In this document: piece after piece, positions 60,667 to 63,536 of the stretch
How the letters are laid out: every line of letters starts with the position of its first letter
Position numbering within the stretch: position 1 is the first letter of the stretch
NCBI GenBank assembly: GCA_025964715.1
Contig: JAOPYH010000375.1
Span: forward strand, 1-64,000
Direction of reading: 5' to 3'
DNA length: 64,000 bases
Source of the DNA: Streptosporangiaceae bacterium
Lineage (GTDB): Bacteria > Actinomycetota > Actinomycetes > Streptosporangiales > Streptosporangiaceae
Translations under genes and position numbers: made by a program
The notes under the pieces: generated by a model
The model's input: the letters and a program-made list of their open reading frames with translations, nothing else
Database searches by the model: none
What the model was told of the DNA's origin: nothing

Positions 60667-61410
60667 ATGGACAAGAGCCGGATCCTCATCGTGCAGCACG
60701 CCCCCTGGGAGGGGCCCGGCCGCTATGCGGAGATCCTCGCCGCCGCGGGCGCACAGCCCGTGACGGTGCGGCCCGATCTCGGCGAAGAGGTCCCCGACCC
60801 GGAAGGCTACGACGGCGTCGTCGTGATGGGCGGCCTGATGGGCGCCACCGATGAGACCACGTTCCCATGGCTGGCCGCGGAGAAGCGCATGCTGGCAGCG
60901 GCCGTCGACGCGCAGACGCCGGTCTTCGCGGTGTGCCTGGGCGCTCAGCTCCTCGCCCTCGCCACCGGCGGCCGGGTCCGGCCGGGTCCCGCACCGGAGC
61001 TCGGAATCCATACGGTGCGGCTCACGCCGGCCGCGCTGACCGACCCGCTCTTCGAGGGGCTGCCCCGGCGGCTGAGTGTCTTCCAGTGGCACGGGGACGC
61101 CTTCGAGCCCGGACCCGGGGCGGTCACGCTCGCGCATTCACCGCTCTATCCCTGCCAGGCCGTGCGCGTCGGCCGTGGCGCCTACGGTCTGCAGTTCCAT
61201 TTGGAGATCTCCGCCGGGATGCTGGCCGAGTGGTCCGACGTCCCGGCATGCGCGGCCGACGCCGAACGCGTCATGGGCCCGGGTGGCTTCAGCGACCTGC
61301 TCGCGGAGCTGAGCCCGCACGAGACCGGCCAGGACGACCTCGCGCGGCACATCTTCGACCGCTGGCTGAAGCTGGTCTCACGGCGGGAGGACCGTCCGGT
61401 CCGGGCGTGA
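60667..61410 (+). CDS. Class I glutamine amidotransferase-like protein
   Basis: This 247-residue protein has the full class I glutaminase triad: C90 in AVCLGAQLLALATGG, and H178 and E180 in AYGLQFHLE. It resembles stand-alone GMP-synthase-like amidotransferase domains and so may release ammonia from glutamine or gamma-glutamyl compounds. Its partner is not in the window. The preceding 180-bp gap holds no gene. The convergent RecQ-like gene ends 14 bp away. Confidence 0.88.
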   Translation: MDKSRILIVQHAPWEGPGRYAEILAAAGAQPVTVRPDLGEEVPDPEGYDGVVVMGGLMGATDETTFPWLAAEKRMLAAAVDAQTPVFAVCLGAQLLALATGGRVRPGPAPELGIHTVRLTPAALTDPLFEGLPRRLSVFQWHGDAFEPGPGAVTLAHSPLYPCQAVRVGRGAYGLQFHLEISAGMLAEWSDVPACAADAERVMGPGGFSDLLAELSPHETGQDDLARHIFDRWLKLVSRREDRPVRA

Positions 61411-61424
61411 GGGAGCGAGGGCGC

Positions 61425-63536
61425 TCAGCTGACCACGGCCAGGGCGAGGGGCAGCACCGCCGTGGCACCGGCCGCGCGCAGCAGCCTCGCGGCCACGGTG
61501 ACGGTCCAGCCGCTCTCGATCCGGTCGTCGACCAGCAGCACCGGGCCCCCGAGGTCCGCGACCGCGGCACTGAGATCCTCGGGCACCCTCAGCGCCTGCG
61601 CCACCGAGCGGAGCCGCTGCGCGCTGTTGTGCTGCCTGGCCACCGGCGGCCCCTGCGGCACGATCTCTCCCACGTAGGGCAGCCGGCCGATCCCGGCGAT
61701 CCGCCGCGCCAGGTCACCGACGAGCAGCGGCCGGGTCCGAGACCCGACGGCGACGACTCCCGCGGGCCGCGTGGTCCAGTCCCAGGCCGCGAGCACCTTC
61801 ACGACCGCGTCGAAGACCTCGGCCGGCACCGGGCCGTCCTCAGCGCCCTCGGCGAACATCTGGCGGAGCCGGTTGCCCCAGCCGATGTCGGTGAGCCGGC
61901 CGAGCACCCGCCCCGGCTCGGCCATGGCCGCCGCCGGGATGCGGCCCGAGAACCCGAGCTCCTTCATCCCGGTCGGCCACATACGCCTGGGCTGTACGTC
62001 CACGCCCGGCCGGCGCAGCCGTTCCCGTGCCTTCGCGGCACCCAGGTCGGACACCTCGGCCGGCCAATGCCGTCCCGTGCAGTTGTCGCAGCGGCCGCAC
62101 GGCACGGCCTCGGGGTCGTCGAGCCGGCGGCGCAGGAACTCCATCCGGCAGCCGTCGGTGCCGATGTAGTCGAGCATCGCCTGCTGCTCGCTGGACCGCT
62201 CCGCCGCGACCCGGGCATAGCGCTCACGGTCGTAGGTCCACTCACGGCCGGTGGCCACCCAGCCGCCGCGCACCCGGCGTACGGCGCCGTCGACGTCGAG
62301 GACCTTGAGCATCATCTCGAGCCGGCTCCGGCTGAGGTCCACGCGGGGCTCCAGAGCACTGGTCGACAGCGGCGTGTCCCCGAGCTCGGCCAGTGTCGTG
62401 CGTACGACCTGTTCGGGCGGGAAGGCCAGCCCGGCGAAATAGGCCCAGATATCGCGGTCCTCCACGCCGGGCAGCAGGATCACCTCGGCCCGCTCCACCC
62501 CGCGGCCGGCCCGGCCGATCTGCTGGTAGTAGGCCACCGGGGACTGCGGCGCGCCGACGTGCACGATGAAGCCCAGGTCGGGCTTGTCGAACCCCATGCC
62601 CAGGGCGCTGGTCGCCACGAGCGCCTTCAGCTTGTTGTCCAGCAGGTCCTGCTCCGCCCGCAGCCGCTCGGCCTGCTCGGTCTGCCCGGAGTAGGCCGCC
62701 ACCTCGTAACCGCGGTCCCTGAGCAGCCCGGCGATGTCACCCGCGGCCGCGACGGTCAGCGTGTAGATGATCCCCGAGCCCGGAAGCTCCGCGAGCCGGT
62801 CGGCCAGCCAGGCGAGGCGCTGCTCGGCCACCGGGAGCCGCACGACGGACAGCCGCAGGCTTTCGCGCTCGAGCGGGCCGCGCAGCACAAGGGTCTCGCC
62901 GGCGGACGCGGCGGTCAGCTGTTCGGCGACGTCGCGGGTGACGCGGGCGTTCGCGGTGGCGGTGGTGGCCAGGACCGGGATGCCCGGCGGAAGCTCGGCG
63001 AGCAGCGTGCGCAGCCGCCGGTAGTCCGGCCGGAAGTCGTGACCCCAGTCGGAGATGCAGTGCGCCTCATCCACGACGACCAGGCCGGCGCCGGCCGCCA
63101 GCTTGGGCAGGACCTGATCACGGAAGTCGGGATTGTTCAGCCGTTCCGGGCTGACCAGGAGCACGTCGACCGCGCCGGCCTCCACGTCGGCATAGACCCG
63201 CTGCCAATCCTCGGTGTTGGCCGAGTTGATCGTACGGGCGTGGATGCCGGCGCGGTCGGCCGCGTCGATCTGGTTGCGCATGAGGGCCAGCAGCGGCGAG
63301 ACGATCACCGTGGGTCCGGCTCCCCTGGCCCTGAGCAGTGCGGTCGCCACGAAGTAGACGGCTGACTTGCCCCACCCGGTGCGCTGCACGACGAGGGCGC
63401 GGCTGCGCTCCACCACGAGTGCCCTGATCGCGGTCCACTGGTCTTCGCGGAGCCGGGCGTGATCGCCGGCCAGGGCCCGCAGCAACCGCTCCGCCTCGGC
63501 CCGCAGGCTCTCATCGCGTGACTCCGTCTCGGCCAT
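61425..63536 (-). CDS. RecQ-like DNA helicase with C-terminal phosphoribosyltransferase-like domain
   Basis: This 703-residue protein has a RecQ-type helicase core: Walker A in VQRTGWGKSAVYF (about 50-62), motif II VVVDEAHCISDWGHDFRPDY, motif III TATA, motif VI QQIGRAGRGVERAEVILL. A zinc-binding cluster follows (DGCRMEFLRRRLDD..VPCGRCDNC). The C-terminal 150 residues are not RecQC/HRDC. They contain a phosphoribosyltransferase-type pyrophosphate motif (GGPVLLVDDRIESGWTVTVAARLLRAAGA). Helicases with such a tail occur in actinobacteria, but the role is unclear. DNA repair is assumed. Confidence 0.87.
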   Translation of the reverse strand: MAETESRDESLRAEAERLLRALAGDHARLREDQWTAIRALVVERSRALVVQRTGWGKSAVYFVATALLRARGAGPTVIVSPLLALMRNQIDAADRAGIHARTINSANTEDWQRVYADVEAGAVDVLLVSPERLNNPDFRDQVLPKLAAGAGLVVVDEAHCISDWGHDFRPDYRRLRTLLAELPPGIPVLATTATANARVTRDVAEQLTAASAGETLVLRGPLERESLRLSVVRLPVAEQRLAWLADRLAELPGSGIIYTLTVAAAGDIAGLLRDRGYEVAAYSGQTEQAERLRAEQDLLDNKLKALVATSALGMGFDKPDLGFIVHVGAPQSPVAYYQQIGRAGRGVERAEVILLPGVEDRDIWAYFAGLAFPPEQVVRTTLAELGDTPLSTSALEPRVDLSRSRLEMMLKVLDVDGAVRRVRGGWVATGREWTYDRERYARVAAERSSEQQAMLDYIGTDGCRMEFLRRRLDDPEAVPCGRCDNCTGRHWPAEVSDLGAAKARERLRRPGVDVQPRRMWPTGMKELGFSGRIPAAAMAEPGRVLGRLTDIGWGNRLRQMFAEGAEDGPVPAEVFDAVVKVLAAWDWTTRPAGVVAVGSRTRPLLVGDLARRIAGIGRLPYVGEIVPQGPPVARQHNSAQRLRSVAQALRVPEDLSAAVADLGGPVLLVDDRIESGWTVTVAARLLRAAGATAVLPLALAVVS

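What the first reader, a model, noticed from the sequence alone, without database searches (positions are those of the whole stretch)
61425..63536. RecQ-like helicase fused to a phosphoribosyltransferase-like domain
The helicase core and zinc cluster are standard, but the C-terminal 150 residues replace RecQC/HRDC with a chain that ends in a PRPP-type motif (VLLVDDRIESGWT). This joins a DNA motor with a nucleotide-metabolism fold and could couple repair to a small-molecule signal.
Basis: partly seen in the sequence, partly recalled or inferred. Interest (0 to 1): 0.5.

Follow-up and report, generated by a model that had tools for sequence, protein, structure and literature searches.

The report
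RqlH helicase with phosphoribosyltransferase tail
The gene encodes a DNA-unwinding motor with a nucleotide-enzyme fold attached; the fusion is real, but it is an already described bacterial protein called RqlH, here an ordinary chromosomal actinobacterial copy.

Summary
Window 61425-63536 (minus) encodes one intact 703-aa protein: RecQ-like motor, zinc cluster, no RQC/HRDC found, and a tail that AlphaFold2 folds confidently (pLDDT 95.6). Its best fold match is ComF (Z 12.6), then ShosT (10.9, tied with adenine phosphoribosyltransferases). But the architecture is known: the RqlH clade (PMC4670107), which PADLOC models as PsyrT (E 2.6e-217, residues 12-701). In paired systems RqlH is genotoxic and restrained by a DprA-like partner (RqlI/PsyrA). 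Here it stands alone: no partner in the window, none among three DprA hits in the 86%-complete assembly, no DprA-like ORF in the flanks of the 80 closest named relatives. It is widespread in its order (145 of 150 sampled genomes, own included). RqlH without RqlI in Gram-positives was published in 2015. Coupling to a small-molecule signal is untested. Small new details: a winged-helix-like linker and loss of phosphoribosyltransferase acids in two actinobacterial clades.

The parts
61425..63536 (-). RqlH/PsyrT-family protein, 703 aa, whole ORF
   Evidence: ORF; PADLOC PsyrT PDLC03928 residues 12-701, E 2.6e-217
62442..63536 (-). RecQ-like two-lobe ATPase core (residues 1-365)
   Evidence: DEAD 31-200 and Helicase_C 250-345; with the zinc module it aligns to RecQ cores of BLM, Deinococcus RecQ, WRN and RECQL5 at Z 33-34, 389-403 residues aligned within about 4-490
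63363..63380 (-). Walker A motif TGWGKS (residues 53-58)
   Evidence: T53, G54, G56, K57, S58 invariant in alignment A4, 39 sequences with the window
63060..63071 (-). DEAH box (residues 156-159)
   Evidence: invariant in alignment A4, 39 sequences with the window
62229..62441 (-). RqlH linker (residues 366-436), predicted winged-helix-like
   Evidence: helix-helix-helix-hairpin in the full-length model; weak hits to winged-helix families such as MarR_2 and DprA_WH and HlyU (E 0.024; two RAP-domain proteins rank above it)
62067..62228 (-). Zinc module (residues 437-490), cysteines 463, 480, 483, 486
   Evidence: RecQ_Zn_bind 448-487 at 23.9 bits, just under the cut-off; all four Cys in 79 of 80 named homologues, the 80th having a gap there; absent in L053, L054 and L061
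61428..62039 (-). C-terminal ComF-like type I phosphoribosyltransferase domain (residues 500-703)
   Evidence: model pLDDT 95.6; ComF 7p0h Z 12.6 over 168 residues, ShosT 8zvc/8zvd Z 10.9
61623..61628 (-). Conserved Asn-Ser (residues 637-638) of the PRTase domain
   Evidence: 79 of 80 named homologues; the 80th, L125, has no readable tail in that frame
61503..61541 (-). PRPP-type motif VLLVDDRIESGWT (residues 666-678)
   Evidence: [DE]D in 73 of 80, acidic 674 in 71 of 80, [ST]GW[ST] in 74 of 80 homologues, L125 counted as a miss in each

Best explanation
The gene is a solo chromosomal RqlH (PsyrT family). SHOWN HERE: a RecQ-type motor, a winged-helix-like linker (predicted), a zinc module and a ComF-like PRTase tail (predicted fold) with an intact PRPP-type motif, present in nearly all sampled genomes of its order, without a DprA-like partner gene beside it. 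INFERRED from characterised relatives: it uses ATP to move 3' to 5' on single-stranded DNA and unwinds duplexes in DNA repair or recombination; the tail is not needed for the motor. INFERRED, less sure: the tail binds PRPP-Mg and acts on a base, nucleotide or DNA end that the motor exposes. In forms paired with a DprA-like gene this activity is genotoxic and held in check by that partner; the actinobacterial solo form has a milder, differently controlled or partly regulatory version.
For: PsyrT profile over residues 12-701 at 721 bits, against 317 bits over the motor only for the same assembly's ordinary RecQ. RecQ cores align within residues 4-490. ComF is the best fold match, Z 12.6. In F11 RqlH the D663A and DIVD-to-EVME pocket variants had no notable effect on growth, SOS or filamentation and only modest effects on viable counts; the PRTase is reported as dispensable for ATPase and helicase in M. 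smegmatis (passages). Prevalence: 145 of 150 sampled genomes of the order at E<=1e-100, the window's own included. No DprA-like ORF in the flanks of 80 of 80 named loci, found in 4 of 9 other loci by the same search; 75 of the 80 have at least 1.5 kb downstream. Assembly DprA hits score 46 to 95 bits with the PsyrA model against 452 to 475 for three real partners. Some more distant window neighbours recur: PfkB in 8 of 80, the 58361 gene in 7 of 80.
Against: No biochemistry can be run here. The M. smegmatis and F11 proteins themselves were not fetched; the link rests on the PsyrT model, the architecture and Mycobacteriaceae relatives of 61-62% identity. The single-sequence PRTase hit is below the Pfam cut-off, only 4 Foldseek matches reach E<=0.001 and TM-scores are about 0.3-0.5, so the PRTase is divergent. 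The two immediate neighbours (amidotransferase, NlpA lipoprotein) recur in 0 of 80 loci, so synteny is weak. The assembly is 86% complete, so an unlinked partner could be missing. The 80 loci are the best-scoring 80 of 588, a capped list. [quoted passage not shown] Residue 674 is Glu; the equivalent F11 residue D663 (mapped by motif only) was Glu in the quadruple variant above.
Confidence: 0.82

Rival explanations
1. It is an anti-phage or toxin-antitoxin effector of the PsyrTA type whose DprA-like antitoxin is encoded elsewhere or is replaced by the cell's ordinary DprA.
For: PsyrT match over residues 12-701; paired PsyrTA-type loci on a Nostoc plasmid (L059), within a BREX locus of Acinetobacter (L062) and on a contig classed as viral (L053); ShosT is among the best fold matches.
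Against: No partner in the window or in the flanks of 80 named relatives; none of the three assembly DprAs is PsyrA-like; present in 145 of 150 sampled genomes of the order, unlike the patchy spread usual for defence systems (recalled); published as RqlH-only in 99.6% of Gram-positives.
Confidence: 0.12
2. The tail is a PRPP or nucleotide sensor that regulates the motor; the PRTase does no catalysis. (Overlaps with the last clause of the best explanation.)
For: Two actinobacterial clades keep the Asn-Ser and Ser/Thr-Gly-Trp-Ser/Thr residues but have lost acids: D671 in 5 of 5 Nocardiaceae rows, residue 674 in 6 of 6 readable Nocardioidaceae rows. PurR and PyrR, regulators with this fold (function recalled), are among the fold matches (PurR also).
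Against: 61 of 80 homologues keep the full motif as scored and the window keeps both acids plus Glu674; the motor works without the tail in M. smegmatis (passage).
Confidence: 0.2
3. The PRTase-like match is a coincidence of a short Asp-Asp motif and the tail is another fold.
For: Weak single-sequence score; most PDB profile hits cover mainly the motif; low Foldseek TM-scores.
Against: Confident model with ComF as best match over 168 residues, Z 12.6; conserved Asn-Ser away from the motif.
Confidence: 0.01

Closest known systems
RqlH of Mycobacterium smegmatis (MSMEG_5935) and E. coli F11
   Same: RecQ-like motor and C-terminal PRTase; like M. smegmatis and Streptomyces, no RqlI. The 2012 paper itself is not held; its content is taken from PMC4670107 passages and recall (zinc module, linker and lack of RQC/HRDC are recalled).
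   Different: Neither protein was fetched, so no direct alignment was made. Glu at position 674, where the F11 motif as printed has Asp. E. coli F11 has the RqlI partner in an operon.
PsyrT of the PsyrTA toxin-antitoxin/defence system (PADLOC PDLC03928)
   Same: Profile match over residues 12-701, 721 bits; same domain order.
   Different: No PsyrA next to it; two paired PsyrT proteins score 940 and 1011 bits; conserved chromosomal gene here.
ComF/ComFC phosphoribosyltransferase
   Same: Best fold match of the tail (H. pylori ComF, Z 12.6); profile comparison with the assembly's own ComF aligns 59 columns around the PRPP motif (prob 93%).
   Different: ComF is a separate protein, not fused to a RecQ motor; the assembly's ComF has a weak zinc-ribbon hit.
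ShosT (PDB 8zvc, 8zvd)
   Same: Fold match Z 10.9 over 165-170 residues, tied by Z with adenine PRTases (10.3) that align over fewer. ShosTA is a toxin-antitoxin system with a DprA homologue as antitoxin (passage).
   Different: Chain length 412-424 residues, so no room for a RecQ motor. No ShosT mechanism paper was recognised in the listings.
Canonical RecQ with RQC and HRDC (L002 in the same assembly)
   Same: Motor, 36% identity over residues 8-358.
   Different: RQC and HRDC instead of linker and PRTase.

Membership tests
RqlH clade / PsyrT family | RecQ-like helicase core | tested here: met
RqlH clade / PsyrT family | tetracysteine zinc module after a clade-specific linker (definition recalled) | tested here: met
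   C463, C480, C483, C486 in 79 of 80 named homologues and in the window; linker between RecA2 and the zinc module in the model; RecQ_Zn_bind just below cut-off
RqlH clade / PsyrT family | no RQC and no HRDC domain (definition recalled) | tested here: met
   none listed at E<=1; positive control L002
RqlH clade / PsyrT family | C-terminal ComF-like PRTase module | tested here: met
   sequence hits to ComF are below its cut-off, the fold match carries this
RqlH clade / PsyrT family | 3'-5' translocase and helicase activity | not testable with these tools
   needs purified protein
PsyrTA / RqlHI toxin-antitoxin system | adjacent DprA-like antitoxin (PsyrA/RqlI) | tested here: not met
   neighbours are a glutamine amidotransferase and an NlpA lipoprotein; no PsyrA-like DprA in the assembly
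PsyrTA / RqlHI toxin-antitoxin system | toxicity without the partner | not testable with these tools
   needs expression
Type I phosphoribosyltransferases | PRTase fold | tested here: met
   predicted model
Type I phosphoribosyltransferases | PRPP-type motif (hydrophobic stretch, two acids, loop ending in Ser/Thr-Gly-x-Thr; definition recalled) | tested here: met
   VLLVDDRIESGWT, residues 666-678
Type I phosphoribosyltransferases | Pfam PF00156 gathering score by its own sequence | tested here: not met
   15.2 bits against 26.3
Type I phosphoribosyltransferases | PRPP binding or transfer | not testable with these tools
   needs an assay
Canonical RecQ (TIGR01389) | match at the equivalog cut-off | tested here: not met
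   267.6 bits against 640.2, best stretch 26-367

The most novel reading that the evidence does not exclude
In Actinomycetota RqlH has become a core, partner-free repair helicase whose PRTase was turned from a genotoxic catalyst into a ligand-binding switch: some clades have discarded the catalytic acids while keeping the phosphate-binding loop. The window's Asp-to-Glu change at the base-contacting position (role recalled from HGPRT) would be an intermediate step that makes an antitoxin unnecessary. Against it: PMC4670107 reports no major sequence differences between RqlH proteins with and without RqlI, and most solo homologues keep the full motif.
Probability: 0.15. Interest if true: 0.45.

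Novelty: already known. Interest (0 to 1): 0.13.

Why it matters
As a finding it is ordinary: the fusion is published. What remains open is what the PRTase of RqlH does and why Gram-positive bacteria tolerate it without RqlI (raised in PMC4670107). The clade-wise loss of acids seen here offers natural variants with which to test whether PRTase catalysis matters in solo RqlH.

Tried and rejected
Sought phage or plasmid carriage: 0 of 22 phage records with a match cover 80% of the query; 11 of 133 plasmid records with a match do. IMG/VR gave 5 loci with the single sequence and 39 with the alignment, most of them matching only the motor region. The viral fold library gave nothing at E<=0.001. Promoter and terminator scans were empty.

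A comparison with many more paired RqlH proteins from other phyla could not be set up because the tool needs a genome handle, so 'paired' rests on four loci (L053, L059, L061, L062). In L061 the DprA-like reading frame is split in two in the record; it was left as it is.

Considered and dropped: a reading as DpdF (PADLOC DpdF models hit RecQ motors in general; the ordinary RecQ L002 hits one at 983 bits). The class count of 202 of 296 genomes (E<=1e-60) includes at least two weak ones (G107 and G114, best E 1e-61 to 1e-63) that may be other RecQ-like helicases. In one search, 28 of 41 genomes matched, the own one included.

The tree is a quick one with a midpoint root and long branches; L055 and L125 (no readable tail) were left out, and its change counts leave out 71 ungrouped rows. 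L125 counts as a miss in the tallies. The structure alignments used 58 of 81 usable tails plus the window and 38 homologues plus the window.

Papers: PMC4670107 abstract, passages, section 15 and part 1 of section 16; PMC5512222, PMC13316683, PMC9122126, PMC8790059 and PMC10482375 passages only; the 2012 RqlH paper and Sberro 2013 are not held and are known from citations and recall. Literature searches, listings only: RqlH, RecQ with ComF, PsyrTA, ShosTA and PRTase toxins, RecQ-like helicase with Mycobacterium.

Full report
The reading frame at 61425-63536 on the minus strand is intact, starts with ATG and encodes 703 residues. DEAD (31-200) and Helicase_C (250-345) match strongly, RecQ_Zn_bind (448-487) just below its cut-off, Pribosyltran weakly at 663-693, and no RQC or HRDC is listed at E<=1. 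In the same assembly an ordinary RecQ of 610 residues (L002) has both RQC and HRDC, so the absence is not a failure of the method.

The tail was modelled from residues 500-703 with 58 relatives: pLDDT 95.6, pTM 0.91. Foldseek against the PDB returns PRTases and kin (APRT, HGPRT, PyrR, PurR, ComF) with TM-scores of about 0.3-0.5; only four matches reach E<=0.001. Realignment ranks H. pylori ComF first (Z 12.6, 168 residues, rmsd 4.0). ShosT with phosphate or PRPP-Mg follows (Z 10.9, 165-170 residues), tied by Z with adenine PRTases at about 10 that align over fewer residues. By sequence, at E<=0.1, 16 of 17 tails hit Pribosyltran, 15 of 17 ComF and 14 of 17 PRPP synthetase; the PDB profile search is led by PRPP synthetases over the motif alone. 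The profile aligns with the assembly's own ComF over 59 columns around the motif. So the evidence for ComF kinship is mainly structural.

The motor part of the full-length model (pLDDT 90.6) aligns with RecQ cores of BLM, Deinococcus RecQ, WRN and RECQL5 within residues 4-490 (Z 33-34, 389-403 residues). Residues 366-436, between the second RecA lobe and the zinc module, are predicted as three helices and a hairpin; their profile gives weak hits to winged-helix families, with two RAP-domain proteins ranked above them in the PDB search. This is suggestive only.

The protein belongs to a known family. The PADLOC PsyrT model matches residues 12-701 at E 2.6e-217. PMC4670107 (abstract, passages, section 15, part 1 of section 16) describes RqlH as a RecQ-like helicase with a C-terminal PRTase, first found in M. 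smegmatis (2012 paper not held). It reports that the PRTase is dispensable for ATPase and helicase there; that E. coli pocket variants have no notable effect on growth, SOS or filamentation and modest effects on viable counts; that the PRTase domain alone is not toxic and helicase-dead variants still lower viable counts; that the DprA-like RqlI restrains RqlH; that 99.6% of Gram-positives in its survey have RqlH only; and that no major sequence differences separate RqlH with and without RqlI. PMC9122126 (passage) names rqlHI, shosTA and syrTA as toxin-antitoxin systems with DprA-homologue antitoxins. The M. smegmatis and F11 proteins were not fetched; the nearest checked kin are Mycobacteriaceae loci at 61-62% identity to the window protein.

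Context. Downstream lies a convergent glutamine amidotransferase (60667-61410 plus) and upstream an NlpA lipoprotein gene cut by the window edge. The assembly (7.1 Mb, 542 contigs, 86% complete) has three DprA-domain hits, all generic: 46 to 95 bits with the PsyrA model, against 452 to 475 for the partners in L053, L059 and L062. Relatives, own genome included: 28 of 41, 145 of 150 of the order, 202 of 296 of the class with a few doubtful. In 80 named loci, all actinobacterial and the best-scoring of 588, no DprA-like ORF was found in the flanks, while the same search found one in 4 of 9 other loci (L053, L059, L061, L062); 75 of the 80 have at least 1.5 kb downstream. On the tree the window protein groups with Actinomadura (78% identity). 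The two immediate neighbours recur in 0 of 80 loci, PfkB in 8 and the 58361 gene in 7. High prevalence and a tree that largely follows the families fit a vertically inherited chromosomal gene; synteny adds little.

Active site. Asn637-Ser638 is present in 79 of 80 homologues, two acids at 670-671 in 73, an acid at 674 in 71 (Asp 56, Glu 15) and the [ST]GW[ST] loop in 74; 61 of 80 meet the whole motif as scored. The 19 others include five with Arg for Gly676, a change also seen in paired proteins L053, L059 and L061, and L125, whose tail is not readable in that frame. The window has Glu674. By motif the position corresponds to D663 of F11 RqlH (inferred from the printed DIVD motif); from recall it is the base-contacting Asp of HGPRT. 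D671 is lost in the five Nocardiaceae rows; residue 674 is non-acidic in six Nocardioidaceae rows, Dietzia (which also has Thr670) and one Frankiales row. On the drawn tree the five and the six form one group each (support 94 and 92), Dietzia and the Frankiales row lying apart.

Mechanism. Most likely an ATP-driven 3'-5' DNA motor (inferred from M. smegmatis RqlH) with a PRTase tail that can bind PRPP; what the tail modifies or senses is unknown in the literature seen. The signal-coupling idea stays possible but has no direct evidence here.

Verdict: true observation, known architecture, ordinary member.

Noticed in passing
L107, L110, L112, L126, L133 (Nocardiaceae); L117, L118, L122, L131, L135, L137 (Nocardioidaceae): RqlH tails keep the Asn-Ser and Ser/Thr-Gly-Trp-Ser/Thr residues but have lost D671 (Nocardiaceae) or the acid at 674 (Nocardioidaceae), pointing to clade-wise loss of PRTase catalysis.
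   Followed up: partly
window 62229-62441 (residues 366-436): The RqlH linker before the zinc module is predicted to be winged-helix-like, weakly similar to MarR and DprA winged helices.
   Followed up: partly
L053, L054, L061: These RqlH proteins (two IMG/VR contigs, Sinorhizobium meliloti pSymB) lack all four zinc-cluster cysteines that 79 of 80 actinobacterial homologues have.
   Followed up: no
L062 (Acinetobacter sp. SH20PTE14 plasmid): A PsyrT/PsyrA pair lies inside a BREX locus between pglX and a DUF262 gene.
   Followed up: no
L053 (IMG/VR contig): A PsyrTA-type pair sits on a contig classed as viral; its RqlH is closely related to the one on a Sinorhizobium meliloti pSymB.
   Followed up: no
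L060 (Halanaeroarchaeum plasmid): A haloarchaeal plasmid carries an RqlH with no DprA-like ORF in its flanks and Gly at the position of residue 674.
   Followed up: no
L050 (contig C515 of the window's assembly): A 3.4-kb contig with dprA next to a plsY-like gene is unlike the dprA locus of L051; possibly contamination of the assembly (not tested).
   Followed up: no
L183 (Tsukamurella plasmid): RqlH lies just upstream of yajC-secD-secF, an adenine phosphoribosyltransferase and a RelA/SpoT gene on a plasmid record.
   Followed up: no
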